Below, one piece after another: positions 35,219 through 51,228 of a stretch of DNA of 64,000 nucleotides. The notes below the pieces were generated by a model. It was not told the origin of the DNA. It was given only the letters and a program-made list of their open reading frames with translations, and did not search any database. The stretch covers positions 43,970,311 through 44,034,310 of the forward strand of contig OX328106.1 of NCBI GenBank assembly GCA_946811185.2. Direction: 5' to 3'. Made by a program: the position numbers and the translations under genes. Numbering within the stretch: the stretch's first letter is position 1; every line of letters begins with the position of its first letter. Source of the DNA: Hippopus hippopus. Its lineage: Eukaryota > Mollusca > Bivalvia > Cardiida > Cardiidae.

Positions 35219-35375
35219 ATTTCATCAGCTTGTGGTTAATATGGGGAAATATTTGCCTCAAAAGGGAAAGGTCCGCGAAAATAACTCGTGCCTTACGGCA
35301 CGAGTTATTTTCGCGGACCTTTCCCTTTTGAGGCAAATATTTCCCCATATTAACCACAAGCTGATGAAATAAACT
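35219..35375. repeat. Long near-perfect hairpin (about 75-bp arms)
   Basis: The arms run ATTTCATCAGCTTGTGGTTA ... AATAACTCGTGCC and back GGCACGAGTTATTTTCGCGG ... ACCACAAGCTGATGAAATAA, with almost no loop (TTAC). Complementarity looks essentially complete. Confidence 0.9.
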
Positions 35376-35899: not shown

Positions 35900-35908
35900 A
35901 GTAGTAAA

Positions 35909-35962
35909 GGAAGAGAGAATACGGACACACCTGGGCCTGGGTGTGTCCGTATTCTCTCTTCC
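35909..35962. repeat. Terminal hairpin, left end of element 2
   Basis: The arms GGAAGAGAGAATACGGACAC(ACC) at 35909-35931 and their complement at 35940-35962 are perfect over 23 bp, with an 8-nt loop TGGGCCTG. It starts nine bases inside the terminus, so the end of a single strand could fold back. Confidence 0.9.
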
Positions 35963-36089
35963 CTGAGTGCCCTATATCACCGTCCCTGACAAAAATGTGG
36001 GCTAATTTGCCCTCCGAAGGTCCGAAAAGTTGCGAGTAAGCGATAAAGTCCGAGATTCCGCATGAAAATGTTACTATAAATAGAATCAT

Positions 36090-36320
36090 AGCATTCAAAA
36101 TGGCGGCCGTGCGGAGGATACTCTGGGGATGTGTCCCTATTTGCTGTCCCCGAAAGATTTTTTTTTTATTTTGTCCCTAGGCTCTCTTCCCTGAGCGGGA
36201 TTTAGCATTCAAAATGGCGGCCGTGCGGAGGACACTCTGGGGATGTGTCCCTATTTGCTGTCCCCGAAAGATTTTTTTTTATTTTGTCCCTAGCTCTCTA
36301 CCCTGAGAGGGATTTAGCAT
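36090..36320. repeat. Two direct repeats of about 110 bp, left arm
   Basis: Each copy has ATTCAAAATGGCGGCCGTGC, CTCTGGGGATGTGTCCCTAT, TTGCTGTCCCCGAAAGATTT and TTTGTCCCTAG. The second copy is followed by a partial third head (ATTCAAAGTGCAGGCC). ATGGCGGC matches a YY1-type site. Confidence 0.85.
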
Positions 36321-36339
36321 TCAAAGTGCAGGCCTTATG

Positions 36340-37135
36340 ACTGTCAGGTTGGGTAAAAATGGTCAGATCACTGAGTTGGACTTAGTTTTTTTCACCCTAT
36401 GGATGATTTTTTCTCTTTCTAATTGCCTGACCATCGAGTTGGACTTAGACTTTTTTCTGCATCTCTATGAATGATTTTCTTTCTAAAAAGCCTGACCATT
36501 GAGTTGGACTTAGTTTTTTCTGCACCTATGAATGATTTTCTTTCTAAAAGCCTGATCATTGAGTTGGACTTAGACTTTTTTCTGCATCTCTATGAATGAT
36601 TTTCTTTCTAAAAGCCTGACCATTGAGTTGGACTTAGTTTTTTCTGCACCTATGAATGATTTTCTTTCTAAAAGCCTGATCATTGAGTTGGACTTAGTTT
36701 TTTCACCCTATGAATGATTTTCTCTCTCTAAAAGGAATTTATCCCTATATCAGTGAGTTGTACTTAGTTTTTTCCCCTATGGATGATTTCTCTAAAAGAT
36801 TGAGCGCTGAGTTGGACTTAGTCTTTTTTTACCCTATGTATGATTTTTTCTCTCTAAAAGGAAATTTATCCTATATCACTGGGTTGGACTTAGACTTTTT
36901 TCTGCATCTCTATGAATGATTTTTTTCTTTTCTAAAAGGAAATTTATCTTATATCACTGAGTTGGTCTTAGCTTTTTTTCCCTATGAATGATTTTCTCTC
37001 TTTCTAAAAGGTTGACCATTGAGTTGGACTTAGTCTTTTTACATCTCTATGAATGATTTTTTCTTTCTAAAAGACTGATCACTGGGTTGGATTTAGTCTT
37101 TTTCTGCATCTATGAATGATTCTTACTCTTTGGAG
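36340..37135. repeat. 60-bp tandem repeat array, left arm
   Basis: About 13 imperfect units contain GAGTTGGACTTAGTTTTTTC, CCTATGAATGATTTT and CTTTCTAAAAGCCTGA. It is the inverse complement of 50000-50765. Short open frames across it are identical in both arms and are not considered genes. Confidence 0.9.
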
Positions 37136-37204
37136 TGTAACTCTCTGGAGTATAACTCTTTTGGAACGTGTCTGTTCTAAAAGAAAGATAGAACTTTCGT
37201 GGTA

Positions 37205-37576
37205 GATGGTTAGTCCTGAAAAGGACTGTTGGGTTAGCTCTGAAAAGAGCTGTGACAATTTGAAGAAATGACAACTTGAAGATAGAACTTTCGTCTGACA
37301 GCTTGAAGGTAGAACTTTCGTCTGACATCTTGAAGATAGAACTTTCGTGGTAGATGGTTAGTCCTGAAAAGGACTGTTGGGTTAGCTCTGAAAAGAGCTG
37401 TGACAATTTGAAGAAATGACAACTTGAAGATAGAACTTTCGTCTAACAGCTTGAAGGTAGAACTTTCGTCTGACAATTTGAAGAAATGACAATTTGAAGA
37501 AAAGATAGAACTTACGTCTGACAATTTGAAGAAAGGTAGATCTTCCGTGGTAGATGGTTAGCCCTGAAAAGGGCTG
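37205..37576 (-). terminator. Cluster of five histone-type 3' stem-loops, left arm
   Basis: Read on the minus strand, five 16-nt hairpins with a UUUC loop lie at 37560-37575 (stem AGCCCU/AGGGCU), 37384-37399 and 37236-37251 (AGCUCU/AGAGCU), and 37360-37375 and 37212-37227 (AGUCCU/AGGACU). Each is followed by AACC. The first lies 45 nt after the stop of the 37620-37835 gene. The purine-rich CGAAAG about 15 nt downstream resembles the position of a histone downstream element. Confidence 0.8.
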
Positions 37577-37619
37577 TTGGGGTGTCCCTAAAAGGGAGCT
37601 GGTTTTGGAGGTTGTGTTT

Positions 37620-37835
37620 TTAAGCACAACCTCCAACCTTTCTGCAGGCTGGACAGCTACTCGCAGCCCGCCTCTTTAGCCTCTTCAACTCCTGTTCATC
37701 CAGTCCAAAGTCCAAAGAGAACGAAGGCTCAGCGTCTTCGTTCCAATCTTCGGTAGAAGCCACTACGAACTCCTTCTTCTTCTTGTCGTCCATCTTTTTT
37801 CTGGATGATAGCTGCGCAAGCTCGCTAAAGCTCAT
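37620..37835 (-). CDS. Small acidic/basic protein with C-terminal CPAC motif, left-arm copy
   Basis: This 71-residue ORF starts MSFSELAQLSSRKKMDDKKK, has an acidic middle (TEDWNEDAEPSFSLDFGLDE) and ends in a basic segment with SCPACRKVGGCA. It is nearly identical to residues 8-78 of the right-arm gene at 49270. The longer start used there is ATT here, so the first seven residues are lost in the left copy. The Cys motif could bind zinc together with a partner; no family is recognised. Confidence 0.75.
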   Translation of the reverse strand: MSFSELAQLSSRKKMDDKKKKEFVVASTEDWNEDAEPSFSLDFGLDEQELKRLKRRAASSCPACRKVGGCA

Positions 37836-37879
37836 ATCTCTTAAAGCACACTCAATATTGTCTACAAGTCGAAGAGAAT

Positions 37880-38000
37880 GAACGATGTGCGGGAAATGAC
37901 GCTGGGTTTTATAGGTTTTCAGACGGATTGAACTAGTTGACCCATGACGTCATTTTCTCCTATGTTTTTCCCGCGTCGGCGTTTCATGCTGTTTTTTGGC
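37880..38000 (-). promoter_or_regulatory. Cassette promoter P1 (minus strand)
   Basis: On the minus strand: GCCGACGCGGGAAAAACATA, then a CRE-type TGACGTCA (37945-37952) and a TATAAAA box (37907-37913) about 70 bp upstream of the small gene. The same module recurs at 39615, 47650 and 49138. Confidence 0.8.
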
Positions 38001-38299
38001 TCCAAAAATTAATGTTAGCCAATCAGAATCAGCGTTTTATTTCTAATACTAAATGTTTTATTTTTTGACCAACCCGTGGGTTTGTTACATTTTTTCTTGT
38101 TCTGGGGATTTTATTGTTGCCCAATCCATGGGTTTGTTACATTTTCTTGTTCGGGTTAGAAAAACTAGAGTTTAACTAACAGTTATGAGACGTTGTATGG
38201 GAAAAATGTAGACAGAACAAAGTCTTTTGGGGAAAAAACAGAATGAAGAACTCTATTGTTTTTTGAACTTTTATTTATTGAACTTTTATTTACTGAACA

Positions 38300-38690
38300 G
38301 AACTAAACATTGAAACATTTTTTTTGCAATGCATCATAAAAAAATTTCTTGACAATGAAAAAAATTTCTTGACAATGAAAAAAAATCACAAGCAAACATT
38401 TTTTGCAATGCATCATAAAAAAATTTCTTGACAATGAAAAACACATTTTCTTAACAATGAAAAAAATCACAAGCAAACATTTTTTTGCAATGCATCATAA
38501 AAAATTTCTTGACAATGAAAAAATATTTTCTTACCAATGAAAAAATCGCACTGAAATATTTTTTCACAATGAATTATTCACAACGAATTAATCGCAATGA
38601 ATTAATCACAATGAATTATTTTTCGCAATGATTTATTTACAATGAATTAATCGCAAAAAACAGTATATAACAAATTTTATGCAATGTAAA
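38300..38690. repeat. AT-rich tandem array, left inner TIR
   Basis: Repeated GCAATGCATCATAAAAAAAT and TTTCTTGACAATGAAAAAAA units, then CAATGAATTA(A/T)TCGCAA units. The array reappears inverted at 46165-46545. Between 38001 and 38300 lie conserved TIR sequences (CAACCCGTGGGTTTGTTACA) without a gene. Confidence 0.85.
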
Positions 38691-38721
38691 TTCGCAAACA
38701 CCACAAGTTTCACATTTGTTT

Positions 38722-39384
38722 TTATATTCCTACCGTTTTGTTGTTTTTTCTTGGTTGTTTTCGTTCTGTCTTTGGTTTTTTCGGGATCTTGAAATCAACG
38801 TGATTGTCAATGTTTTTCCCGTATTTGCCCTGCCCTGTCAATATTGGTATAGTTGGTTTTTGATCAACTCGCTGCTTCTTGTGGAGATGGTTACCATCTT
38901 CCTCAGATTTCCGCTTTGTTGTTTTTCTTGGTTGTTTTTCCTTTGGTTGATTTTTCTTTGGTTGATTTTTCTTCACAACACTTACGATAGAGTCCACTAA
39001 GTTGTGAAGATTGGATTTATCAAACTCGAACTCCACAGGAATCTTCACAGGAGTTGTTGAAATGAGCTGATCCTGTTGACGTAGTACCTCGATATTTCTA
39101 CTGAGCTGATCAGTACTTGCGGTTAAAGTTTTAATTTCCTCCAAATGTCTGTTTAAAGTCTCCAGCTGATCTATGATTCGGATCATCATGCTATCTTGTT
39201 TCAAATTTAGCTGCTTTACCTCTTCATAAATGTTATCAAACACTGTCGCTGGAATGATGGTTGTCGAATTTAACTCCGGTGGTGGATTGATAATTGTCGA
39301 ATTCATAACTGATGAAAGAACGTCTCCATTGTTTTCCACTGATGGAAAATCGTCCAAGCTGATTTCATCTAAGTTGTGCTTCAT
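38722..39384 (-). CDS. Coiled-coil protein with basic C-terminus
   Basis: This 220-residue protein counts from the ATG at 39384; the frame is open further upstream but only from a GTG. An acidic N-terminus is followed by a coiled coil (residues about 60-115, EEVKQLNLKQDSMMIRIIDQ) and then a long Lys/Arg/Gln/Pro-rich tail. The tail has tandem KNQPK units and nuclear-localisation-like KKQRVDQK and KKPKTERKQPRK. The layout suggests a nuclear DNA-binding or terminal-protein-like role, but no family is recognised. Its promoter and leader are homologous to those of the 47028 gene on the right arm. Confidence 0.75.
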   Translation of the reverse strand: MKHNLDEISLDDFPSVENNGDVLSSVMNSTIINPPPELNSTTIIPATVFDNIYEEVKQLNLKQDSMMIRIIDQLETLNRHLEEIKTLTASTDQLSRNIEVLRQQDQLISTTPVKIPVEFEFDKSNLHNLVDSIVSVVKKNQPKKNQPKEKQPRKTTKRKSEEDGNHLHKKQRVDQKPTIPILTGQGKYGKNIDNHVDFKIPKKPKTERKQPRKNNKTVGI

Positions 39385-39535
39385 ATTGTAACTGACTCTG
39401 AATATTGATACTGCTTTCGAAGTGATCGTTAGCTGAGAATCAAAGAAATGGTGAATATATGAAAATAACACCGAGCTTTATACGTTTACAGAGGATTGAA
39501 ATTTTTAAAGAGGGCGGACCTGGCGGAAAACACCG
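39385..39535 (-). promoter_or_regulatory. Promoter P6 and leader of coiled-coil gene
   Basis: The TATA-type TATAAA (minus strand) lies at 39477-39482, within CTGTAAACGTATAAAGCTCG. The leader includes TCAGCTAACGATCACTTCGA. Both are repeated at 46905-47027 upstream of another gene. Confidence 0.7.
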
Positions 39536-39611
39536 GTATTGTACTGTGTGACACCGAATTAGGAGTGGTAAAAAAACACCGATATAACCGTCGATTTGAT
39601 TGCACAATGTT

Positions 39612-39731
39612 AATGAAACGCCGACGCGGGAAAAACATAGGAGAAAATGACATCATGAGTCATCTAGTTCAATCCTTCTGTAAAGCTATAAAGCCCAGCG
39701 ATAATTTACATAAAATCATATTTGTTCCAGA
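39612..39731 (+). promoter_or_regulatory. Cassette promoter P2
   Basis: CGCCGACGCGGGAAAAACAT, TGACATCA (a one-base variant of the CRE in other copies) and CTATAAAGCCCAGCG, 50-60 bp before the zinc-ribbon start. An open frame through the promoter at 39496-39777 is considered a shadow. Confidence 0.75.
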
Positions 39732-39938
39732 ATGGTTCGAATTCTTGTATGCCCTCACTGTGCAAACAGATGTCTGATAGAGTGTGGGAAATGTTTTTCC
39801 ATACTCGAGTATCTTGGTCAGAAGCATAACTGTCCAGATACAGATGAAGGATTTTATGATGATGATGAAGGTTCGACGATTTACTGCGAACATTGTGGAT
39901 GTGAAATCATCCCAGTAGATCGGGCGGTAGAATCGTAG
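39732..39938 (+). CDS. Small zinc-ribbon protein
   Basis: This 68-residue acidic protein has Cys pairs CPHC, CGKC, a CPD turn and CEHCGC, which suggest one or two zinc sites in a ribbon. An acidic patch (DTDEGFYDDDEG) precedes the last pair. It could act in transcription, as zinc ribbons of TFIIS or RNA polymerase subunits do, but that is a guess from composition. It is a stand-alone promoter-gene-stem-loop cassette located in the core rather than in a TIR. Confidence 0.75.
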   Translation: MVRILVCPHCANRCLIECGKCFSILEYLGQKHNCPDTDEGFYDDDEGSTIYCEHCGCEIIPVDRAVES

Positions 39939-39970
39939 AGCTGGATGTCAATGTGAGATCCTTCAAAAAA

Positions 39971-39986
39971 AGCCCTTTTCAGGGCT
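39971..39986 (+). terminator. Histone-type 3' stem-loop
   Basis: AGCCCTTTTCAGGGCT followed by AACCA lies 33 nt after the zinc-ribbon stop. It has a 6-bp stem and UUUC loop; CGAAAG follows about 14 nt downstream. Confidence 0.85.
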
Positions 39987-40092
39987 AACCATTTAGCACG
40001 AAAGATCTTTCTTCTCAAATTGTCAAAAGTAAAAAGACTTACAGTCATAACTAGAAAAAAGTCAAAAGTAAGAAGTAATTATTTTTATATTT

Positions 40093-40098
40093 TTTATT
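40093..40098 (-). terminator. AATAAA poly(A) signal of the zinc-knuckle gene
   Basis: Minus-strand AATAAA about 150 nt after the stop at 40246. No histone-type hairpin is visible on this strand here. Nothing else is evident at 39987-40245. Confidence 0.55.
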
Positions 40099-40245
40099 TC
40101 AAAAAAGAACTTATGTACAATGAAAAAATCAAAATCATGAACTGTAAAGACAAAAAATGAATGAACTGTAAAAGACAAAAATGAATGAAAAAAATCAAGT
40201 CAGTCTTTTTTTGTTTATAATCAATATTGTATTGAAATCTTTTTT

Positions 40246-41097
40246 TCACTCAGTATGTTTTTTCTTTTTCTTTGAGATGTCAGATTCACATTTGTTTTTA
40301 CGTTTTCTTTTCCTATCGTTGGTTTTTAATTCCACATCTGGACAGATTTTATCCTCATGTTTTGTTGATTTGTAAAAGAAATAGTTCTTTGTCACTCGTT
40401 TTTTCTTCTTTTCGATGTTTTGCTGTTTTTCCTTTCCGTACGAACAACCCGGTTCTGCAGAAAATTCGTTTTTTAGATCCAAAGTTTGTTGTTTTCTTAG
40501 ATTATCGTTTGTAGATATTTTTTTCTCTGTCTGTTCTGTTATTTTGCAGATTTCTGAATCGCTGTTAGCCGCTGTATCGCTCTGCATGTCTACGATCTGA
40601 GTTACAATCGATGAGGATGTAGCTTGTGGTGAACTTTTTTTCCATGTATTTTCACTGCAGAATGAATTTAGTGTGCCGACGAATTTTATATCTTTGAGAC
40701 AATCAACGTTGTAAAACGATGGTAAAATCTCAATGTCGTGACTGTGTGGATTCACGTAGACAAAAACAATTGTACCTAGCTGATTTTCTTTTTCTGCACA
40801 TTCTTTGGTCCAATGTCCTGCTTCGTTGCATGTGAAACAAATATTTGTTCTCACACCATTCACACCATATCGTTTGTCAATCATCGCTTGATCCAAAACT
40901 CTGTAACTGGTAGTACGGTAAACATCTTTTTCTTCTAAATGTTGCTGGGATAAAAATGATCCCACATAGTTTCCGATATGTTTAACATTATACTTTGATG
41001 GTATATTGCTGATCTCATAATCGTGGGTGTATGGATTAACATACAGATACACCCTCTTTCTAAGTGGTGATGTATTTTGCAGCTTTAACTCACTCAT
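40246..41097 (-). CDS. CCHC zinc-knuckle protein with duplicated domain
   Basis: This 283-residue protein has a retroviral-type zinc knuckle CFTCNEAGHWTKEC (C-x2-C-x4-H-x4-C) near residue 87. It is flanked on each side by a homologous block: VYLYVNPYTHDYEI...YNVKHIGNYVGS before it and VFVYVNPHSHDIEI...YNVDCLKDIKFVGT after it. The C-terminal third is low complexity, with basic clusters (KKKKRV, KRKRKNK) that could be nuclear signals. The start is the ATG at 41097. Nucleic-acid binding is a fair inference. The duplicated domain is unknown to me. Confidence 0.78.
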   Translation of the reverse strand: MSELKLQNTSPLRKRVYLYVNPYTHDYEISNIPSKYNVKHIGNYVGSFLSQQHLEEKDVYRTTSYRVLDQAMIDKRYGVNGVRTNICFTCNEAGHWTKECAEKENQLGTIVFVYVNPHSHDIEILPSFYNVDCLKDIKFVGTLNSFCSENTWKKSSPQATSSSIVTQIVDMQSDTAANSDSEICKITEQTEKKISTNDNLRKQQTLDLKNEFSAEPGCSYGKEKQQNIEKKKKRVTKNYFFYKSTKHEDKICPDVELKTNDRKRKRKNKCESDISKKKKKHTE

Positions 41098-41255
41098 ATT
41101 TTTTTTATCAGCTGTACTGACTGAGATCGAGTAGGAGAATGAATAGATTTTCACAACTAACGGCTTATTTATACACTGTTACAACGGAGAGGGTATATAA
41201 ATTGCTAGTTTTTTCTCACTTCTGCATTATTGTCTTTTCACTCAGAGCTAAAACG
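41098..41255. promoter_or_regulatory. Divergent promoter between zinc-knuckle and polymerase genes
   Basis: TATATAA at 41194-41200 points right to the polymerase start at 41256. A TATAAATA on the minus strand at about 41166-41173 points left. It shows none of the CRE module of the cassette promoters. Confidence 0.65.
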
Positions 41256-44205
41256 ATGGGTAAAAGAAAAAGAATAATAACCTATTCAGACAGTGAAAGT
41301 GACGATGAGGTGTTTCCACCAACAAAAAAGAAAAAAAACTAGACCTTTGAAAGAAGAAAGTGACGATGAGGTGTTTCCACCAATAAAAAAGAAAAAAACT
41401 AAACCGTTGAAAGAAGAAAGTGACGATGAGGTGTTTCCACCAACAAAAAAGAAAAAAACTAGACCTTTGAAAGAAGAAAGTGACGATGAGGTGTTTCCAC
41501 CAATAAAAAAGAAAAAAACTAAACCGTTGAAAGAAGAAAGTGACCATGAGGTGATTCCACCAATAAAAAAGAAAAAAACTAAACCGTTGAAAGAAGAAAA
41601 TGATAGCGACGATGAAAGTACCAACTCTAACTTAGACATGAAAAGTCTATATGATTTAACAGAAAAGGGTAATAAGAAGTCAAGAAAATTTAAAACAGAA
41701 TCACATGTGCTGATGCTGAGTTTTAAGAAATTTGAAGAATTATCACCTCAGAGACTCCTTGGATTATTTGACGATGTTACCCGTGAAATCATTCGAAAGT
41801 TAAATGCCAGCCCGACGGATATGATTAGGATTACCATCAATCATCCTTCGTTGGAAATAGGAATCCATATTCCTTTTTTAGCTGCAGACCAGTTACAAGG
41901 TGAAACTATGCTGAATGAAATTGAACGAGTTTTACAATCGAATACAGATTTCGTCTTGAACGATGGATTCATGACATTTGACATCACACATACAATACCA
42001 CCAACTGGTAGCGGAAAACCAAAATATAGATCGTCAGAATTAGATTCAAAGTTTTTTGCCCAGAAGAAAAAATCCATTATTCAAATTGACAATCATGACC
42101 AACTATGTTTTGCAAGAGCCGTTGTTGTGGGAATTTGCTACAGTGAACGTGAAAACACCAAAGTATGGAAAAGAAAATGGGATCGTATTTGTCGTTCAAA
42201 CCGCCCTCTTCAAAAGACTGAAGCTGAGAAATTGTTACATGAAACTGGAGTTTCACCAACACAACCTATAGGAATTGACGAATACAAAAAAATTCAAGCA
42301 TTCTTCTATGAAAAAGGCTATGTCATTAAAGTTCACCAGCAGCATTCAAAAGTGGAAAAAATATTTAAACATCCAGAAGTGAAAACCAATAGTAAGATCA
42401 TACATTTGTACTTTCATCAAAACCATTACGACTACATTAAATCTATCAAAGGTTTTCTTAGTTGTGGATATTATTGTGAGTTCTGTGATGTGGGTTACAC
42501 TCAGCGGGAAGGTCATGCTTGTTCAAATATCTGTAAAGGTTGTTATCGCGAAGGAAAATGTCCATCAGAATCAAAAGAATATGTTTGCAGTGTTTGCAGT
42601 AGACGATTTTTTAGTGCTGAATGCTTTGAAAATCACAGAAATGTTCAAGGTAAAGAAAAGAAATCCATTTGTGAATTAGTGAAACTCTGTTCGAAATGCG
42701 GTGCACAATATCATATCAGAAAGAAAAATCATGTTTGCAATGGAAAGAAAAGATGTCATATCTGTAAGAGAATTGTTAACTTTTCTCATCAATGCTATAT
42801 TCAACCTTACCAAAGTAAGTTGAACCATGACAGCGATGACGAGACGAGTTCTTCTGTAGTCAAAAAACCACAGTTTATTTTCTTTGATTTTGAATGCAAA
42901 CAAGACACAGGTGTACATATCCCAAATTATTGTATCGCACACAGAGCGTGTGATGAATGTATCGATAAATCACTTGATTTTCATTGTTCTACATGCAGTG
43001 AATTTGAAGAGGGTAGGGAAGTTATTTTTCAAGGTGAAAAAACTTTGAGTCAATTTTGCAACTGGCTCTTTTCAAAACATCATAAAGGGGTTACGGCTAT
43101 TGCCCATAATTTCAAAGGCTATGACGGGCAGTTCATTCTTGACTATATTGTCAAAGTTGGGTTAAAACTTCCAAAATTGATCATGAATGGAAACAATATT
43201 ATGAAGTTAGAACTGAACGGTGTACGTCTGATCGATTCTTTCAATTTCATGAGTTTTGGTTTGGCAAAATTTCCATCCACCTTTGGCCTTCAAGAAATGA
43301 AAAAAGGTTACTTTCCTCACTGGGCGAATACAGATGAATTTTGGAGTTACATCGGACCCTACTTGGATATGTCTTATTACAAACCCGACTCAATGTCTGA
43401 AGAGGCTAGGTCGAAATTTATAGTTTGGTATAATGACAAAGTTCGAAATGGTGAGGAATTCAATTTTCAGAAGGAGATGGAAATGTACTGTAGGTCAGAC
43501 GTTGATATCCTCAGACGAGGGTGTGCTGAATTCAGAAAGCTGTTTATCGAACAGGGCGGTATTTGTCCATTTTTAGAGGCGATTACCATCGCAGATGCCT
43601 GTAACAAAGTGTGGCGAAGCAAATATTTACCAGAAAATCAAATAGCTATCATTTCAAGTAAAGACTCATCCAGACGTCGCTTTTCTATGAAAGCGATACG
43701 ATGGGTTCAAAGCATTGCTCAGGAAAAAGGTATTAATATTCAGCATGCAAAAAATGGTGGTGAAGCTCAAATCGGGAAATATAGTGTAGATGGTTTTCAC
43801 CATCAATCAAACACTGTTTATGAATTTCTTGGGGATTTGTATCATGGTTGTCCTGTATGCTATACAGATCGAAATCAGATCAATCCTATTAATGGAAAAC
43901 CCATGTCTGAATTGTACGAACGTACTTTTGAACGTATAGCAGATATCGAAGACATGGGATATAATGTAGTGTACATTTGGGAACACGAATTTGATGCTAA
44001 GATGAAGGATAAAGAGTACAAAAAACACATTGAAAAGTTATATCCACATTTGGACCCTATCGATCCGAGGGATGGTTTGTCCGGGGGAAGATGTAATGCA
44101 ATAAAAATTGGATATGATGTTGATGAAAAAACCAAAAAGGAAATCAAGTACATCGATATCTGTTCTCTATACCTTATGTTTGTAAACACAAATCCTACCC
44201 TGTAG
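41256..44205 (+). CDS. Protein-primed DNA polymerase B (second type), N-terminal part
   Basis: The ATG at 41256 opens a short frame (MGKRKRIITYSDSES) that leaves the polymerase frame inside the first 60-bp repeat, because its A-run has 8 A where later repeats have 7. The main frame runs from about 41293. After six ESDDEVFPPxKKKK repeats come a Cys/His-rich region (about 42460-42800, for example CEFC, CSVC, CSKC, CHIC), ExoI FFDFECKQD, ExoII NFKGYDGQF and ExoIII YCRSDVDIL. A Vsr-like nuclease domain follows at 43690-43990 (GGEAQIGKYSVDGF, YEFLGDLYHGC). The frame ends within motif A (DICSLY). Confidence 0.92.
41285..41610 (+). repeat. Coding 60-bp tandem repeat
   Basis: Six units encode ESDDEVFPPTKKKKTRPLKE with alternating variants. 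Acidic and lysine runs alternate, suggesting a disordered, nucleic-acid-facing N-terminus. The minus strand shows false open frames of Phe-rich sequence. Confidence 0.92.
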
Positions 44206-45425
44206 GTCAGCCAGAAATTTTGTCTGCTGAGAATATTGATATGAACAATATTCGCCAATATGAGGGATTAATCAAATGCAAAGTTTTACCTCCATCTGAT
44301 TTGTTTCACCCCGTTCTTCCAGTTCACTGTAACAACAAAATGATGTTTCCCCTCTGTATGAAATGTGCAGAAGAAAGCTCAAACATTTGTAGACATGGTA
44401 AAGAAGAGAGGGCTTTGGTCGGAACTTGGGTTACTTTTGAATTATTCAAGGCTCTTGACTGCGGTTATCGATTATTGCAAGTGTATGAAATTTGGCATTT
44501 CAATTCTGTGTCAGATCAGTTCTTTAAACATTATGTGGACAATTTCTTGAAAATTAAGCAAGAAGCCAGTGGTTATCCAGATTGCTGTCAATCAGACTCA
44601 GAAAAAGATCAGTTCGTTTGTGAATATGAGAAGGCAGAAGGTGTTCGTCTTGATCCAAGTTGTATTCAAAGAAATCCTGGGAGAAGATCATTTGCTAAGA
44701 TTATGTTGAACTGTCTTTGGGGAAAATTAGCTCAGCGTGAAAAAATGATCCAGACGGAATACATCAGTGATCCGTCTAAATATTTTGAATTAGTCACCAA
44801 CCCCAATTTCATTGTAAAGCATGTAGAAATCTTTGATGAGAACTGTTCATTCATCTTGGTTAACTATGAATCGAAGCTGGAACATATTGACACCCATGCT
44901 ACAGCCAATGTGATAGTAGGTTCTTACGTAACAGCTTATGCAAGGTTGGAATTGTACAGTGTTCTTGAAAAGTTAAAAGATAGAGTTCTGTATTTCGATA
45001 CAGATAGTTGTATGTACATTCACGACCCCGAATTATGGAATCCCCCTATTATTAACAGCCGGTTAGGAAAATGGACTGATGAAGAGCCTGCTTGTAAAAT
45101 TACTCAATTCAGAGGACTTGGACCTAAGAATTATGCTTACAAAATGAAAACAAAAGATGGAAAAGAGATAAGCAAATGTAAAGTAAAGGGGATTACTCTG
45201 GATTACAATACAAAACAGGTGGTAAATTTCGATACATATTCGAAATGTGCTTTGGATCGTACAGTAGAAATCAAAATTCAGTATGATTGTAAAATTAAAA
45301 GACACAGAGATAGAACGGTTACCAGTGAACCACAAACAAAAACGTTTCGTTCTGTATACACCAAGAGAGTCATTGTAAATGGTACTGATACTGTACCCTA
45401 TGGTTATAAAAGCTTGAGAAAATAA
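44175..45425 (+). CDS. Protein-primed DNA polymerase B (second type), C-terminal part
   Basis: This is the continuation in another frame, equal to loss of one base at about 44172-44175 inside motif A. It contains motif B KIMLNCLWGK, motif C YFDTDSCMY and the thumb-side FRGLGPKNYAYK typical of Polinton and mitochondrial-plasmid polymerases. The first ATG (44240) comes after motif A, so independent translation would give no active enzyme. Catalytic residues of motifs B and C are kept. It is distinct from the polymerase of element 1, which lacks the Vsr-like domain. Confidence 0.92.
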   Translation, partial: YVCKHKSYPVGQPEILSAENIDMNNIRQYEGLIKCKVLPPSDLFHPVLPVHCNNKMMFPLCMKCAEESSNICRHGKEERALVGTWVTFELFKALDCGYRLLQVYEIWHFNSVSDQFFKHYVDNFLKIKQEASGYPDCCQSDSEKDQFVCEYEKAEGVRLDPSCIQRNPGRRSFAKIMLNCLWGKLAQREKMIQTEYISDPSKYFELVTNPNFIVKHVEIFDENCSFILVNYESKLEHIDTHATANVIVGSYVTAYARLELYSVLEKLKDRVLYFDTDSCMYIHDPELWNPPIINSRLGKWTDEEPACKITQFRGLGPKNYAYKMKTKDGKEISKCKVKGITLDYNTKQVVNFDTYSKCALDRTVEIKIQYDCKIKRHRDRTVTSEPQTKTFRSVYTKRVIVNGTDTVPYGYKSLRK

Positions 45426-45507
45426 TTTCATATCACATTGTTGTGTACCAATCACTCAAAGTAAGTCGGGGGAAAAATATTAGCAGTTGATCAAAAAAAT
45501 AACAATC

Positions 45508-46164
45508 ATGTTGCCGTTACCAATAGAACTACGTGAAAAAATTTATGGAGAATTTGTTCGACAGCATACGCTTGATGAACAAACACAGCTTAACATTAAA
45601 TTTTTCTGTGTGAAAATGTGGATCAAAAAAATGTTTAAATGGGTTGCAAAAGGAGAAAAGTCCTACAAAGTGTATGCTATATTCAACTTTATTGCGATGA
45701 TGGTGGACGATTCGGGGATGGATCTCGTTCTCAAGACTTATTTAGCAGATAGCTGTATGAAAGACAATGTTATTAGTAAACTGTTTAGATCCACAAGTCG
45801 ATGGACATTTTTTATCATAGGCCCAACAGAAGAAAGTTTTCTTAACGTTGTGAAAATGAAATCAGTTCTATTTAACTTTTACTTACGCTACAAAAAAGGA
45901 TCTGTTCATGATTCCTACGGAGAAACAGTGGAAACCATGTCAGGATATATTCTATTTGATAGAGATGTTACAGAAGAAGTAGTGAATTCAGCTCTTTCAA
46001 CAAAAGACGCTTATAGACATGTTGCTCCATTCATAGGACTACGAGATTTCAACGATATGGACAGTGAGTATACAATGTTTTTGGGGTATGACCAATTGCA
46101 TAAAGACATTACGGAATATGAAAACAAACGTGAAACTCGTGGTGTTTGCGAATTTGCATTATAA
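45508..46164 (+). CDS. Unknown protein with F-box-like N-terminus
   Basis: This 218-residue protein begins MLPLPIELREKIYGEFVRQH, which looks like an F-box core (LPxELxxxI). A mixed helical domain with many aromatic residues and no clear motif follows. If it is a real F-box it could recruit a host SCF ubiquitin ligase; that is speculative. The start is the ATG at 45508. AATAAA occurs downstream at about 46207 and 46553. Confidence 0.7.
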   Translation: MLPLPIELREKIYGEFVRQHTLDEQTQLNIKFFCVKMWIKKMFKWVAKGEKSYKVYAIFNFIAMMVDDSGMDLVLKTYLADSCMKDNVISKLFRSTSRWTFFIIGPTEESFLNVVKMKSVLFNFYLRYKKGSVHDSYGETVETMSGYILFDRDVTEEVVNSALSTKDAYRHVAPFIGLRDFNDMDSEYTMFLGYDQLHKDITEYENKRETRGVCEFAL

Positions 46165-46560
46165 AAAATTTGTTATATACTGTTTTTTTGCGAATAATTC
46201 ATTGTAAATAAATCATTGCGAAAAATAATTCATTGTGATTAATTCATTGCGATCAAATCGTTGTGAATAATTCATTGTGAAAAAATATTTCAGTGCGATT
46301 TTTTCATTGGTAAGAAAATGTTTTTTCATTGTCAAGAAATTTTTTATGATGCATTGCAAAAAAATGTTTGCTTGTGATTTTTTTCATTGTTAAGAAAATG
46401 TTTTTTTCATTGTCAAGAAATTTTTTTATGATGCATTGCAAAAAATGTTTGCTTGTGATTTTTTTTCATTGTCAAGAAATTTTTTTCATTGTCAAGAAAT
46501 TTTTTTATGATGCATTGCAAAAAAATGTTTCAATGTTTAGTTCTGTTCAGTAAATAAAAG
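46165..46560. repeat. AT-rich tandem array, right inner TIR
   Basis: Inverse complement of 38300-38690: ATTCATTGTGA units followed by TTTTTCATTGTCAAGAAATT and ATGATGCATTGCAAAAAAAT units. AATAAA signals at 46553 and 46564 fall at its end. Confidence 0.85.
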
Positions 46561-46849
46561 TTCAATAAATAAAAGTTCAAAAAACAATAGAGTTCTTCAT
46601 TCTGTTTTTTCCCCAAAAGACTTTGTTCTGTCTACATTTTTCCCATACAACGTCTCATAACTGTTAGTTAAACTCTAGTTTTTCTAACCCGAACAAGAAA
46701 ATGTAACAAACCCATGGATTGGGCAACAATAAAATCCCCAGAACAAGAAAAAATGTAACAAACCCACGGGTTGGTCAAAAAATAAAACATTTAGTATTAG
46801 AAATAAAACGCTGATTCTGATTGGATAACATTAATTTGGAGCCAAAACA

Positions 46850-47027
46850 GTATGAAACGTATCATGGAAAAATGTATGTGCTTTCTGCCAGGTCCGAGCT
46901 CTTTAAAAAATTTCAATCCTCTGTAAACGTATAAAACCCGCGTTATTTTTCACACATTCACCATTTCTTTGACTCTCAGCTAACGATCACTTCGAAAGCA
47001 GTGTCAATATTCGGAAGCAATATCAAT
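46850..47027 (+). promoter_or_regulatory. Cassette promoter P3 (variant)
   Basis: A divergent copy whose TATAAAA lies at 46930-46936 (GTAAACGTATAAAACCCGCG). From CCAGGTCCGAGCTC onward it matches promoter P6 and leader of the coiled-coil gene rather than the CRE type. Confidence 0.7.
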
Positions 47028-47294
47028 ATGGAAGAGGTAAATCATCAACTACGTGAGGCTCTCCAAGAGTATCTAAATGCCGGACAGCAGTTATTGCAAC
47101 TAACCACTCATCTCGTAGGAGAGGAGGAACAAAACCAGCTGCGACGTATAACACAACCATACAAAGATCTCGGCGAAAGATTAGTTCAGCTATTATTAAA
47201 GACAACACCGGATATCATCTTGGTTGATATCGAGTTCGGGAGGAAGATTACAGCATGCCCCATTTGCCAAGCGAATTTCGGGTGTTGCCATTAG
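47028..47294 (+). CDS. Small helical protein with C-terminal CPIC motif
   Basis: This 88-residue protein counts from the ATG at 47028. The N-terminal 55 residues are helical and leucine/glutamine-rich (EEVNHQLREALQEYLNAGQQ), and the end is ACPICQANFGCCH. The terminal CPxC...C pattern recalls the SCPACRKVGGCA of the other arm gene, though the rest is unrelated. It is present only in the expanded right arm. Function unknown. Confidence 0.72.
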   Translation: MEEVNHQLREALQEYLNAGQQLLQLTTHLVGEEEQNQLRRITQPYKDLGERLVQLLLKTTPDIILVDIEFGRKITACPICQANFGCCH

Positions 47295-47329
47295 AACTGG
47301 AAAAAACACAACCTCCAAAAAAACAAAAC

Positions 47330-47345
47330 AGCCCTTTTCAGGGCT
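47330..47345 (+). terminator. Histone-type 3' stem-loop
   Basis: AGCCCTTTTCAGGGCT lies 36 nt after the stop of the 47028 gene, followed by ATCCA and CGAAAG. Confidence 0.85.
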
Positions 47346-47644
47346 ATCCATCTACCACGAAAGTTCTATCATTCTTCAAATTGTCATTTCTTCAAATTGT
47401 CAAACTTCTTTCTTTTAGAAGAGTTACACTGCAAAGATTCACAATAAAAAAAAGTCATAGGTTAGTTAAACTCTAGTTTTTTCTAACCCGAACAAGAAAA
47501 TGTAACAAAACCCATGGATTGGTCAACAATAAAATCCCCGAACAAGAAAATGTAACAAACCCACGGGTTGGTCAACAATAAAACATTTAGTATTAGAAAT
47601 AAAACGCTGATTCTGATTGGCTAACATTAATTTTTGGAGCCAAA

Positions 47645-47771
47645 AAACAGCATGAAACGCCGACGCGGGAAAAAACATAGGAGAAAATGACGTCATGGGT
47701 CAACTAGTTCAATCCGTCTGAAAAGCTATAAATCTCGGCGATTTATTTTCCATGCATTTCATTTTTTCACA
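47645..47771 (+). promoter_or_regulatory. Cassette promoter P4
   Basis: GCCGACGCGGGAAAAAACAT, TGACGTCA at 47688-47695, GGTCAACTAGTTCAATCCGT and TATAAA at 47727-47732, about 40 bp before the ATG. Confidence 0.82.
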
Positions 47772-48086
47772 ATGGCTTCAAGACAATCACCAGTCGTCAC
47801 TTGGATGGATACTGAGCGAAAGTTAATAAGAGCAAGGAGACAAATCGTCTTACTTAAACAACGCCGAGCTGGAGTGAGAAGACGATACGAGAGGGCTGAG
47901 CTTGCTAATAACAGGGTGTTCTGTTATAACCTTCGGATGAAGGAACTCATTATTGAGGGCATGCTTGAGATGTATTTTCAGTATGTTATTTTAAAAACTG
48001 AGCAGGTGACCCGTCTTTTCCGTGCGCAAATCGCCACTGAAAGGAGTGAGTCAGACAGCGAATCGACTGATGCTGATACTGAATAA
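47772..48086 (+). CDS. Small basic helical protein with acidic tail
   Basis: This 104-residue protein has a basic, arginine-rich helical N-terminal two-thirds (RKLIRARRQIVLLKQRRAGV) and an acidic Ser/Glu/Asp tail (TERSESDSESTDADTE) that could be phosphorylated. No cysteine motif is visible apart from one Cys. Presence only in the right arm marks it as part of the cassette expansion. The stop codon overlaps an AATAAA, but the stem-loop 33 nt later is the better 3' signal. Confidence 0.72.
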   Translation: MASRQSPVVTWMDTERKLIRARRQIVLLKQRRAGVRRRYERAELANNRVFCYNLRMKELIIEGMLEMYFQYVILKTEQVTRLFRAQIATERSESDSESTDADTE

Positions 48087-48118
48087 ACATTTTCAAAAAA
48101 ATCAGCTCTTCTCAAAAC

Positions 48119-48134
48119 AGCCCTTTTCAGGGCT
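48119..48134 (+). terminator. Histone-type 3' stem-loop
   Basis: AGCCCTTTTCAGGGCT followed by AACCATC lies 33 nt after the 47772 gene. CGAAAGTTCTATCTTTC follows. Confidence 0.87.
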
Positions 48135-48239
48135 AACCATCTACCACGAAAGTTCTATCTTTCTTCAAATTGTCATTTCTTCAAATTGTCAAACTTCTTT
48201 CTTTTAGAAGAGTTACACTCCAAAGACTCACACTCCAGA

Positions 48240-48660
48240 GAGTTACACTCCAAAGAGTAAAAAATCATTCATAGATGCAGAAAAAAGACTAAGCCCAACT
48301 CAATGTCCAGACAATTAGAAAAGAAAATTCATTCATAGAATAAAAAAGCTAAGTCCAACCCAGTGCTCAGTCTTTTAGAGAGAAAAAATCATTCATAGAT
48401 GTAAAAAAGACTAAGTCCAACTCAATGATCAGACAATTAGAAAGAAAAAAATCATTCATAGATGTAAAAAAAGACTAAGTTCAACTCAGTGCTCAGACAA
48501 TTAGAAATCATTTATAGGGTAAAAAAGTCTAAGTTCAACTCAGTGCTCAGACAATTAGAAATCATTTATAGTGCAAAAAAAAATCTAAGTTCAACTCATC
48601 GATATAGGGACAAATTCCATTTTAGAGAGAAAAAATCATTCATAGGATGAAAAAAACTAA
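48240..48660. repeat. Extra 60-bp tandem repeat block in the right arm
   Basis: About seven units of the TIR repeat (AAATCATTCATAG, AGTCCAACTCA) lie between two cassettes. The left arm has only the outer array, so this block came with the cassette duplication. Confidence 0.85.
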
Positions 48661-48753
48661 AAAGTGATCCATTACACATATAAAACACTAAACTCTTGAT
48701 TATTTTTCTCATTCACCATTAACTTTTTGTAAAACCTGAGCCAGTATCGCACA

Positions 48754-48894
48754 ATGTTTGGATTAACATTTTTTCTCTTATTGCTCTTCTGGTTAGAAGA
48801 AAGAGAACGTTTCAGATATATCAGACATGAAATTGAACATCTGATGCAAATGCTAGATAAAATGGAATCAATCAAAAGAAAGAGAGGGGGATAA
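48754..48894 (+). CDS. Mini membrane protein
   Basis: This 46-residue ORF begins with a single hydrophobic helix (MFGLTFFLLLLFWLEE) followed by a charged amphipathic helix (EHLMQMLDKMESIKRKRG). The layout is a type of small single-pass membrane protein. A TATAAAA at about 48680 and a degenerate stem-loop 27 nt after the stop frame it as another cassette, which supports it being real despite its size. Confidence 0.6.
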   Translation: MFGLTFFLLLLFWLEERERFRYIRHEIEHLMQMLDKMESIKRKRGG

Positions 48895-48920
48895 AAAAGT
48901 GCATTCTGTAAAAAAAAACC

Positions 48921-48936
48921 AACTCTTTTCAGGGCT
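48921..48936 (+). terminator. Degenerate histone-type stem-loop
   Basis: AACTCTTTTCAGGGCT keeps the loop and most of the stem but has one mismatch and one G-U pair. It lies 27 nt after the mini membrane gene. Confidence 0.6.
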
Positions 48937-49134
48937 AGCTATCTTAAATAAACATCTTTCTTTTCATTTTGTCAGAAGACTCATAATCAAAAAAGTCATA
49001 GGTTAGTTAAACTCTAGTTTTTTCTAACCCGAACAAGAAAATGTAACAAACCCACGGGTTGGTCAACAATAAAACATTTAGTATTAGAAATAAAACGTTG
49101 GTTCTGATTGGATAACATTAATTTGGAGTCAAAA

Positions 49135-49269
49135 CAGCATGAAACGCCGACGCGGGAAAAACATAGGAGAAAATGACGTCATGGGTCAACTAGTTCAATC
49201 CGTCTGAAAACCTATAAAACCCAGCGTCATTTCCCGCACATCGTTCATTCTCTTCGACTTGTAGACAAT
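49135..49269 (+). promoter_or_regulatory. Cassette promoter P5
   Basis: Inverse complement of P1: GCCGACGCGGGAAAAACATA, TGACGTCA at 49174-49181, TATAAAA at 49213-49219. The start ATG at 49270 is about 50 bp further. Confidence 0.82.
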
Positions 49270-49506
49270 ATGGAGTGTGCTTTAAGAGATATGAGCTTTA
49301 GCGAGCTTGCGCAGCTATCATCCAGAAAAAAGATGGACGACAAGAAGAAGAAGGAGTTCGTAGTGGCTTCTACCGAAGATTGGAACGAAGACGCTGAGCC
49401 TTCGTTCTCTTTGGACTTTGGACTGGATGAACGGGAGTTGAAGAGGCTAAAGAGGCGGGCTGCGAGTAGCTGTCCAGCCTGCAGAAAGGTTGGAGGTTGT
49501 GCTTAA
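49270..49506 (+). CDS. Small protein with C-terminal CPAC motif, right-arm copy
   Basis: This 78-residue protein starts MECALRDMSFSELAQLSS. It is the twin of the left-arm gene at 37620-37835 with an intact first ATG and a Gln-to-Arg difference. The middle is acidic with several serines and the end basic with SCPACRKVGGCA. It is the only gene present in both arms. A shared C-terminal CPxC...C pattern with the 47028 gene hints at a common binding partner. Confidence 0.77.
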   Translation: MECALRDMSFSELAQLSSRKKMDDKKKKEFVVASTEDWNEDAEPSFSLDFGLDERELKRLKRRAASSCPACRKVGGCA

Positions 49507-49526
49507 AAACACAACCTCCAAAACCA

Positions 49527-49914
49527 GCTCCCTTTTAGGGACACCCCAACAGCCCTTTTCAGGGCTAACCATCTACCACGGAAGATCTACCTTTCTTCAA
49601 ATTGTCAGACGTAAGTTCTATCTTTTCTTCAAATTGTCATTTCTTCAAATTGTCAGACGAAAGTTCTACCTTCAAGCTGTTAGACGAAAGTTCTATCTTC
49701 AAGTTGTCATTTCTTCAAATTGTCACAGCTCTTTTCAGAGCTAACCCAACAGTCCTTTTCAGGACTAACCATCTACCACGAAAGTTCTATCTTCAAGATG
49801 TCAGACGAAAGTTCTACCTTCAAGCTGTCAGACGAAAGTTCTATCTTCAAGTTGTCATTTCTTCAAATTGTCACAGCTCTTTTCAGAGCTAACCCAACAG
49901 TCCTTTTCAGGACT
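49527..49914 (+). terminator. Cluster of histone-type 3' stem-loops, right arm
   Basis: Five canonical hairpins lie at 49551-49566 (AGCCCU stem), 49727-49742 and 49875-49890 (AGCUCU stem), and 49751-49766 and 49899-49914 (AGUCCU stem). A shorter hairpin TCCCTTTTAGGGA lies at about 49529. The first canonical one is 45 nt after the stop. Stem variants covary while the loop is constant. CGAAAGTTCTA(T/C)CTT elements lie between them. Confidence 0.85.
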
Positions 49915-49999
49915 AACCATCTACCACGAAAGTTCTATCTTTCTTTTAGAAGAGGCACGTTCCAAAAGAGTTATACTCCAGAGAGTTACACTCCAAAGA

Positions 50000-50765
50000 G
50001 TAAGAATCATTCATAGATGCAGAAAAAGACTAAATCCAACCCAGTGATCAGTCTTTTAGAAAGAAAAAATCATTCATAGAGATGTAAAAAGACTAAGTCC
50101 AACTCAATGGTCAACCTTTTAGAAAGAGAGAAAATCATTCATAGGGAAAAAAAGCTAAGACCAACTCAGTGATATAAGATAAATTTCCTTTTAGAAAAGA
50201 AAAAAATCATTCATAGAGATGCAGAAAAAAGTCTAAGTCCAACCCAGTGATATAGGATAAATTTCCTTTTAGAGAGAAAAAATCATACATAGGGTAAAAA
50301 AAGACTAAGTCCAACTCAGCGCTCAATCTTTTAGAGAAATCATCCATAGGGGAAAAAACTAAGTACAACTCACTGATATAGGGATAAATTCCTTTTAGAG
50401 AGAGAAAATCATTCATAGGGTGAAAAAACTAAGTCCAACTCAATGATCAGGCTTTTAGAAAGAAAATCATTCATAGGTGCAGAAAAAACTAAGTCCAACT
50501 CAATGGTCAGGCTTTTAGAAAGAAAATCATTCATAGAGATGCAGAAAAAAGTCTAAGTCCAACTCAATGATCAGGCTTTTAGAAAGAAAATCATTCATAG
50601 GTGCAGAAAAAACTAAGTCCAACTCAATGGTCAGGCTTTTTAGAAAGAAAATCATTCATAGAGATGCAGAAAAAAGTCTAAGTCCAACTCGATGGTCAGG
50701 CAATTAGAAAGAGAAAAAATCATCCATAGGGTGAAAAAAACTAAGTCCAACTCAGTGATCTGACC
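50000..50765. repeat. 60-bp tandem repeat array, right arm
   Basis: Inverse complement of 36340-37135, with units AAAATCATTCATAGAGATGC, AGTCTAAGTCCAACTCAATG and ATCAGGCTTTTAGAAAGA. An antisense 69-codon open frame is identical in both arms, showing how similar the arms are. Confidence 0.9.
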
Positions 50766-50809
50766 ATTTTTACCCAACCTGACAGTCATAAGGCCTGCAC
50801 TTTGAATGC

Positions 50810-51040
50810 TAAATCCCTCTCAGGGTAGAGAGCTAGGGACAAAATAAAAAAAAAAATCTTTCGGGGACAGCAAATAGGGACACATCCCCAGAGTGTCCTC
50901 CGCACGGCCGCCATTTTGAATGCTAAATCCCGCTCAGGGAAGAGAGCCTAGGGACAAAATAAAAAAAAAATCTTTCGGGGACAGCAAATAGGGACACATC
51001 CCCAGAGTATCCTCCGCACGGCCGCCATTTTGAATGCTAT
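50810..51040. repeat. Two direct repeats of about 110 bp, right arm
   Basis: Inverse complement of 36090-36320, including CGCACGGCCGCCATTTTGAA twice. Confidence 0.85.
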
Positions 51041-51165
51041 GATTCTATTTATAGTAACATTTTCATGCGGAATCTCGGACTTTATCGCTTACTCGCAACT
51101 TTTCGGACCTTCGGAGGGCAAATTAGCCCACATTTTTGTCAGGGACGGTGATATAGGGCACTCAG

Positions 51166-51219
51166 GGAAGAGAGAATACGGACACACCCAGGCCCAGGTG
51201 TGTCCGTATTCTCTCTTCC
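51166..51219. repeat. Terminal hairpin, right end of element 2
   Basis: GAGAGAATACGGACACACC and its complement around AGGCCC; mirror of the left terminal hairpin and at the same distance from the end. Confidence 0.88.
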
Positions 51220-51228
51220 TTTACTACT

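What the first reader, a model, noticed from the sequence alone, without database searches (positions are those of the whole stretch)
39971..49914. Histone-mRNA-type 3' stem-loops end the small genes of element 2
At least fourteen hairpins of the form AGYYCU-UUUC-AGRRCU, followed by AACC, lie in element 2 in sense orientation. The first one after each small gene lies 27-45 nt past the stop (39971, 47330, 48119, 48921 degenerate, 49551, and on the minus strand 37575). The stem varies (GCCC/GGGC, GCUC/GAGC, GUCC/GGAC) with compensating changes while the loop stays UUUC. The flanks (CCAAC before, AACCA after, a purine CGAAAG about 15 nt on) resemble replication-dependent histone mRNAs, which end this way instead of in poly(A). 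If real, the element captured S-phase-linked, SLBP/U7-dependent 3' processing. I know of no such description for Polinton-like elements.
Basis: partly seen in the sequence, partly recalled or inferred. Interest (0 to 1): 0.93.

Follow-up and report, generated by a model that had tools for sequence, protein, structure and literature searches.

The report
Mobile element borrowing histone mRNA ends
A virus-like mobile element in an animal genome ends its small non-histone genes with the same kind of RNA hairpin and downstream signal that the animal uses for its histone genes, which would tie those genes to the DNA-replication phase of the cell cycle.

Summary
Thirteen perfect AGYYCU-UUUC-AGRRCU hairpins and a degenerate one lie in a 15.3-kb element (35900-51228, 6-bp TSD); the perfect motif is absent elsewhere in the window. 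A first hairpin follows each of five small genes by 26-44 nt, in sense (gene D's is the degenerate one).

The reading as histone-type 3' ends is well supported at sequence level. The host has a tandem histone array and an SLBP gene. Its H1, H2A, H2B, H3 and H4 genes end the same way, hairpin 28-39 nt after the stop; H2B shares GAAAGTTCT and H1 CAAATTGTCA. In 18 other stretches the hairpin follows 37 of 45 small-gene copies, also where synonymous sites are saturated (dS 3.1). Small-gene dN/dS is 0.02-0.54. Two larger genes never carry it (0 of 23 copies or fragments). A distant relative (L003) ends an 89-aa zinc-finger gene in a hairpin above Rfam's cut-off. Promoters of A, C and E carry E2F- and CRE-like sites.

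Against: first pair A-U, not G-C as in the host; the window's hairpins stay below Rfam's cut-off, as do 4 of 5 host histone genes; no U7 gene found; no transcript seen; only one of six distant relatives has the hairpin.

The parts
35900..51228 (.). Element 2: terminal inverted repeats of about 2.1 kb (35900-37995 / 49131-51228), termini AGTAG..., 6-bp target site duplication TGCGGT
39732..39938 (+). small gene A, 68 aa, zinc-ribbon-like cysteines (weak Pfam matches below cut-off)
   Evidence: dN/dS 0.05-0.19 in 7 pairs
39971..39986 (+). histone-type hairpin of gene A, 32 nt after stop
   Evidence: RF00032 25.7 bits
39987..40024 (+). downstream element of gene A (GAAAG 13 nt after the stem) and distal ATTGTC
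47028..47294 (+). small gene B, 88 aa
   Evidence: dN/dS 0.02-0.21 in 11 pairs
47330..47345 (+). hairpin of gene B, 35 nt after stop
   Evidence: RF00032 26.6 bits
47772..48086 (+). small gene C, 104 aa, predicted helical hairpin; an AATAAA overlaps its stop
   Evidence: dN/dS 0.29-0.54 in 5 pairs
48119..48134 (+). hairpin of gene C, 32 nt after stop
   Evidence: RF00032 24.1 bits
48754..48894 (+). small gene D, 46 aa
48921..48936 (+). degenerate hairpin of gene D (second pair G-C lost, A opposite C); AATAAA 52 nt after the stop
49270..49506 (+). small gene E, 78 aa (right repeat)
   Evidence: dN/dS 0.12-0.29 in 9 pairs
49551..49914 (+). five perfect hairpins after gene E (49551, 49727, 49751, 49875, 49899)
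37620..37835 (-). gene E' in the left repeat (starts at a later ATG than E; measured upstream sites from 37853)
37212..37575 (-). five perfect hairpins after gene E' (37560, 37384, 37360, 37236, 37212)
39626..39692 (+). promoter of A: E2F-like GCGGGAAA, TGACATCA, TATAAA
47665..47732 (+). promoter of C: E2F-like GCGGGAAA, CRE TGACGTCA, TATAAA
49152..49237 (+). promoter of E: two E2F-like sites, CRE TGACGTCA, TATAAA
37889..37974 (-). promoter of E': two E2F-like sites, CRE, TATAAA (repeat copy of E's)
41305..45425 (+). DNA polymerase B of PF03175 type, frame broken near 44205; no hairpin after it
38722..39384 (-). 220-aa gene; no hairpin here (AATAAA at 84 nt), but a hairpin in 3 of 9 copies elsewhere
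40246..41097 (-). 283-aa zinc-knuckle gene, AATAAA at 147 nt, no hairpin
45508..46164 (+). 218-aa gene, AATAAA at 42 nt, no hairpin

Best explanation
The hairpins and the roughly 25 nt after them are the host's histone-type 3'-end processing signal, taken over by a Polinton-related mobile element for its small, probably regulatory or accessory, non-histone genes. Shown: position, structure, letters shared with host histone genes, conservation across diverged copies, purifying selection on the genes, and a host SLBP gene. Inferred: host SLBP binds the hairpin, U7 snRNP pairs with the purine element, cleavage falls about 4-5 nt after the stem, and the mRNAs have no poly(A) tail and accumulate in S phase. 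In three of the five genes E2F- and CRE-like promoter sites would add S-phase or stimulus-linked transcription. The larger genes would use ordinary poly(A) signals.
For: 13 perfect hairpins in the element, 0 elsewhere in the window and 0 in 2.56 Mb simulated. First hairpin 26-44 nt past each small-gene stop, in sense; host histone genes 28-39 nt. The block conserved between unlike genes is the hairpin plus about 24 nt. Host H2B has GAAAGTTCT as genes B and C do, H1 has CAAATTGTCA as A, B, C and E do; W-TTGTC lies within 42 nt after the hairpin in 35 of 40 gene-linked units of other copies. Host SLBP PF15247, 60.7 bits. In 18 stretches (130,213 bases) the hairpin lies within 60 nt of the stop in A 8/10, B 11/12, C 6/7, D 2/5 (one of the two degenerate), E 10/11, gene 38722 3/9, against 0/9 for 40246 and 0/14 for 45508. 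Kept in a copy of A with dS 3.1. Of 131 units, picked by CTT.TCAG and at least five pairs, 125 have six standard pairs and 123 the second G-C pair, which SLBP reads (PMC12775136, passage). Gene C in L060 has the double change C-G to U-A at pair 3; gene B shows U-G steps. Relative L003: RF00032 35.8 bits, above gathering, 28 nt after the stop of an 89-aa gene. 13,007 matches of YYCTTTTCAGRRCTAACC in the host genome against 1 for the reversed control.
Against: First pair is A-U in 14 of 14 window hairpins and in all 131 units elsewhere, while 5 of 5 host histone genes have G-C. The window's units stay under Rfam's gathering score. U7 was not found (rang nowhere). AATAAA lies 148, 252 and 52 nt after genes B, C and D and another overlaps the stop of C (48082), so poly(A) ends are possible there. 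Only 1 of 6 distant relatives has a Histone3 match; three of the six are under 4 kb. Host histone promoters have no E2F or CRE match. No transcript data.
Confidence: 0.85

Rival explanations
1. Fossil of capture: the element once picked up a host histone 3' end with a small gene and has copied it passively by gene conversion and duplication; it has no function now.
For: Many hairpins are recent tandem or repeat copies. Gene D's hairpin is decayed here and in 4 of 5 copies read, counting the degenerate L076 one.
Against: Genes A, B, C and E have unlike proteins, yet each has its own hairpin at the right distance. The units have gene-specific tails (A: CATTTAGCACGAAAGATC), so they are not simply homogenised. 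Stems stay paired in copies with saturated synonymous sites.
Confidence: 0.06
2. The palindromes are DNA sites (for an element replication or transcription protein), not RNA structures.
For: Stem symmetry also suits a dimeric DNA-binding protein. Clusters of five lie in the terminal repeats.
Against: Loop is UUUC in one orientation only, sense to the gene; fixed distance to stop codons; purine element downstream; letters shared with host histone genes.
Confidence: 0.03
3. The hairpin stabilises or regulates a polyadenylated mRNA (or is a transcription stop) without the SLBP/U7 route.
For: AATAAA within 260 nt of B, C and D and at the stop of C; AATAAA at 8426 in L003, 114 nt after the stop. 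C. elegans histone genes carry both hairpin and poly(A) signal (PMC1924863, passages).
Against: A and E have no AATAAA or ATTAAA for more than 1.3 kb. The purine element is kept, which a simple stabiliser would not need.
Confidence: 0.06

Closest known systems
Metazoan replication-dependent histone mRNA 3' end (Rfam RF00032, SLBP/U7)
   Same: 6-bp stem, UUUC loop, G-C second pair, A-rich 5' flank, purine element, 26-44 nt from the stop; letters shared with the host's own H2B and H1 3' ends
   Different: Genes show no histone match; first pair A-U; below Rfam's gathering score; hairpins in clusters after gene E
Polinton/Maverick elements and adintoviruses
   Same: Polymerase B of PF03175 type, long terminal inverted repeats, 6-bp target duplication
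   Different: No capsid, ATPase or integrase match among the element 2 proteins scanned; element 1 of the window has those and no polymerase match. A paper on adintoviruses (PMC11071296) has no 'stem-loop' or 'promoter' in its main text (term look-ups only)
E2F/CRE-controlled early promoters of small DNA tumour viruses (recalled, not tested)
   Same: E2F-like and CRE sites with TATA upstream of small genes A, C, E
   Different: No binding data; none in the promoters of B, D or the larger genes of the window

Membership tests
Histone 3' stem-loop (RF00032) | 6-bp stem with 4-nt UUUC-type loop | tested here: met
   13 of 14 in the window; 125 of 131 units, picked for at least five pairs, have six standard pairs
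Histone 3' stem-loop (RF00032) | Second pair G-C, read by SLBP (PMC12775136, passage) | tested here: met
   13 of 14 in window; 123 of 131
Histone 3' stem-loop (RF00032) | First pair G-C as in host histone genes | tested here: not met
   A-U in 14 of 14; G-C in 5 of 5 host genes
Histone 3' stem-loop (RF00032) | Score at or above Rfam gathering (34 bits) | tested here: not met
   22.4-26.6 bits in window; host histones 30.0-35.2, 1 of 5 passes; relative L003 35.8 passes
Histone 3' stem-loop (RF00032) | Purine-rich downstream element 10-20 nt after the stem | tested here: met
   GAAAG 13 nt after the stem in A, B, C (GGAAG in E's first unit, lost in D); host H2B has GAAAG 12 nt after the stem
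Histone 3' stem-loop (RF00032) | Host has SLBP | tested here: met
   PF15247 in two pieces on C11
Histone 3' stem-loop (RF00032) | Host U7 snRNA pairs with the downstream element | tested here: inconclusive
   RF00066 search found none and rang in no control; a U7 pattern search did not complete
Histone 3' stem-loop (RF00032) | mRNA ends 4-5 nt after the stem, no poly(A) | not testable with these tools
   no RNA data
Replication-dependent histone gene | Encodes a histone | tested here: not met
   No histone match for A, B, C, E in Pfam; D was not scanned
Polinton/Maverick or adintovirus | Polymerase B, terminal inverted repeats, 6-bp target duplication | tested here: met
Polinton/Maverick or adintovirus | Integrase and double-jelly-roll capsid in the same element | tested here: not met
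   No such match in the element 2 proteins scanned; present in element 1

The most novel reading that the evidence does not exclude
A high-copy virus-like element has built an S-phase expression programme out of host parts. E2F/CRE promoters switch its small genes on as cells enter S phase. Histone-type 3' ends keep those mRNAs only while DNA is being replicated, the state in which the element itself would replicate, and the cell would clear them afterwards by the histone mRNA decay route. Capsid and integrase would come from a partner element with the same termini and target site.
Probability: 0.45. Interest if true: 0.95.

Novelty: new variant of a known kind. Interest (0 to 1): 0.88.

Why it matters
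[quoted passage not shown] Genes of a mobile element with the same signal would break that rule, show a new way for selfish DNA to couple to the cell cycle, and give natural non-histone test RNAs for SLBP and U7. About 13,000 matches of the hairpin motif in one genome also make a rich natural mutagenesis of the signal.

Tried and rejected
Chance hairpins: rejected. Covariation inside the window as proof: too few independent changes. IMG/VR relatives: polymerase scans gave none and the gene E alignment none. Four hairpin or downstream-element patterns there gave 1, 0, 0 and 0 hits; the one hit lies in a contig whose open frames look prokaryotic to me and I took it as chance. A broad canonical pattern gave 12 hits; none has six Watson-Crick pairs, some have six pairs if G-U is allowed, and 7 of 12 lie inside open frames of 100 aa or more; I took them as chance and did not annotate those contigs. 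Structure of protein C: helical hairpin, no PDB match at E <= 0.001. U7 by RF00066: nothing. Of the histone array, three stretches were fetched and two read gene by gene.

Rows that count against or need care. A misses: two partial frames (L060, L077). B miss: a partial frame (L067). C miss (L072): the hairpin is there, 67 nt on, because the frame ends early. E miss (L075): a hairpin that lost one loop T. D has lost the hairpin in L060, L064 and L072, and in L076 it is degenerate though counted as present. The counts for 40246, 45508 and 38722 include several fragments of one gene. The unit search asked for CTT.TCAG and at least five pairs, so and 136 counts are biased to good hairpins; the loop-unbiased count is 121 UUUC against 1 UUUU, GAAA and AAAA being the other-strand readings. 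dN/dS is by the simple Nei-Gojobori method against the window copy only; pairs with dS at or under 0.02 or not computable were dropped by the script, leaving 7 of 8 for A and 5 of 6 for C, all for the other genes.

Papers: seen as search listings and passages (PMC11071296; PMC5011920; PMC6303110; PMC6210712; PMC1924863; PMC7614891; PMC12775136). No paper was read whole. That the thing is not in print rests on (histone stem-loop + virus + Polinton, 0 papers; SLBP + Polinton, 0 papers), in an open-licence library only.
Full report
Observation. The window holds 13 perfect hairpins of the form AGYYCU-UUUC-AGRRCU and a degenerate one at 48921; all lie in element 2. In 2.56 Mb of simulated sequence of the same dinucleotide make-up the perfect motif did not occur. 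The element spans 35900-51228, has inverted repeats of about 2.1 kb and the 6-bp target duplication TGCGGT. The first hairpin lies 32, 35, 32, 26 (degenerate), 44 and 44 nt after genes A, B, C, D, E and E', in sense. The four larger genes have no hairpin within 1.1 kb of their ends; three of them have AATAAA within 150 nt and the polymerase has ATTAAA at 169 nt. Genes A and E have no AATAAA or ATTAAA for more than 1.3 kb; B, C and D have AATAAA at 148, 252 and 52 nt, and one overlaps the stop of C (48082).

The conserved unit. Between A, B, C, D, E's first and E's third hairpin, identity is 0.22-0.28 upstream, 0.49 in the ten bases before the stem, 0.90, 0.87, 0.77 and 0.67 over the next four tens, then 0.49 falling to 0.28. 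That is the stretch a histone pre-mRNA needs: hairpin plus downstream element. Folding puts the hairpin in the minimum-energy structure of 5 of 6 tested 3' ends, the exception being D.

Rfam. At gathering thresholds the window has no match. With an E-value cut-off on 30000-55000, RF00032 matches nine units at 22.4-26.6 bits, E 0.001-0.04 over the whole library. The host's five histone genes in L055 score 35.2 (H4), 33.5 (H2A), 32.4 (H2B), 31.5 (H3) and 30.0 (H1), so 1 of 5 passes 34; a sixth, cut-off H3 end scores 29.5. The element is 3-13 bits weaker than the host's own genes; its A-U first pair may be one cause.

Host. Its histone genes form a tandem array on contig C15 (150 of 256 candidates scored, 150 PF00125 matches, most of them there). 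In the repeat read here H3, H4, H2B, H2A and H1 each have a hairpin 28-39 nt after the stop. H2B has GAAAGTTCT 12 nt after the stem; genes B and C have it 13 nt after. H1 has CAAATTGTCA 26 nt after the stem; A, B, C and E have it 29-31 nt after (letters). Four of the five host genes have ATTGTC 29-32 nt after the stem, and H2B has TGTC at 30. The host has an SLBP gene. The RF00066 search for U7 found nothing and rang in no control. Three of the 120 listed relatives of element 1's capsid carry a species name, all from the scallop Ylistrum balloti (70-71%), so a bivalve host is likely but not shown; bivalve histone mRNAs with the hairpin are described (PMC6210712, passage).

Other copies. YYCTTTTCAGRRCTAACC occurs 13,007 times in the host genome against once for the reversed control. 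I read 18 stretches (130,213 bases) on the first contig listed, picked by eye from the places shown, not at random. Hairpin within 60 nt of the stop: A 8 of 10, B 11 of 12, C 6 of 7, D 2 of 5, E 10 of 11; gene 38722 3 of 9, 40246 0 of 9, 45508 0 of 14. Of 131 hairpin units, picked for CTT.TCAG and at least five pairs, 125 have six standard pairs, 112 six Watson-Crick pairs and 123 keep the second G-C pair. In gene C the L060 copy has U-A where the others have C-G at the third pair, and B copies show the U-G step. Gene D has an intact hairpin in the distant copy L071, so the loss in the window is probably secondary; the other four D ends read have AATAAA where the purine element lay, as in the window.

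Selection. Against the window copy dN/dS is 0.05-0.19 for A (7 pairs), 0.02-0.21 for B (11), 0.29-0.54 for C (5) and 0.12-0.29 for E (9). For comparison 45508 has 0.32-0.75 (6) and 40246 0.27-0.60 (3). The L071 copy of A has dS 3.1 and still the identical 16-nt hairpin, 26 nt after the stop. So A, B and E, and less clearly C, behave as real genes, and the hairpin is kept while silent sites are saturated.

A distant relative. A scan of bacterial and archaeal genome contigs with the polymerase alignment found six contigs that I take for eukaryotic contamination. One, L003 (8,883 bp), has a polymerase in three frames (36% identity), an rve-chromodomain integrase, a TATA-binding-protein homologue and, about 350 nt on, an 89-aa C2H2 zinc-finger gene. 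That gene ends in GGCCCUUAUCAGGGCC 28 nt after its stop, RF00032 35.8 bits, above gathering. Its upstream 200 nt hold three TGACGTCA sites. The other five (L002, L004-L007) have no Histone3 match; three are under 4 kb.

Promoters. In the window E2F-like TTTSSCGC sites lie within 125 nt upstream of A, C, E and E' (E' being a repeat copy of E): 6 of the 9 in the whole window, where a Markov model expects 2.95 per 64 kb and 0.06 in six 200-nt stretches. A, C, E and E' also have TGACGTCA or TGACATCA. In the copies: A E2F 6 and CRE 7 of 10, C 6 and 6 of 7, E 11 and 10 of 11; B (12), D (5), 40246 (9) and 45508 (14) none; 38722 1 and 2 of 9. The five host histone promoters read here (300 nt each) have neither, so the promoter part is not copied from histone genes.

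Judgement. The sequence evidence that these are working histone-type 3' ends is strong; that they act through SLBP and U7 and couple to S phase is inference from the known pathway (PMC7614891 and PMC12775136, passages). I found no description of this in Polinton-related elements (open-licence papers only).

Noticed in passing
window 2991-20572 and 35900-51228: Element 1 (target duplication ACCGCT) has capsid, packaging ATPase and integrase but no polymerase match; element 2 (TGCGGT, that is ACCGCA on the other strand) has the polymerase but none of those among the proteins scanned. Both begin AGTAG and sit at ACCGC, as if one integrase served both.
   Followed up: partly
L003:7189-7695: A polymerase- and integrase-bearing element encodes a TATA-binding-protein homologue (PF00352, 96 bits).
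   Followed up: no
window 49597-49623, 49671-49698, 49819-49846: Weak matches to the downstream purine element without a hairpin lie between the hairpins after gene E (10.8-15 bits, E 0.12-2.1, with model R1).
   Followed up: no
window 38722-39384 and L060, L061, L074: The same gene has a hairpin end in some copies (75-79% identical) and none in others (95-98%), so the 3'-end type seems to switch during the element's evolution.
   Followed up: partly
window 44205-44241: Polymerase frame broken in this copy although the terminal repeats are 98-100% alike, so it looks like a young but polymerase-defective copy.
   Followed up: no
window 47291, 49506: Proteins B and E end in similar CPxC...G-C motifs although otherwise unlike; gene E has a relative (66% over 68% of it) on an 8.8-Mb contig elsewhere.
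   Followed up: no
window 35207-35427: Near-perfect long hairpin just outside element 2 (83-nt arms, 98%); Rfam's snR82 match there is below its cut-off and looks spurious.
   Followed up: no
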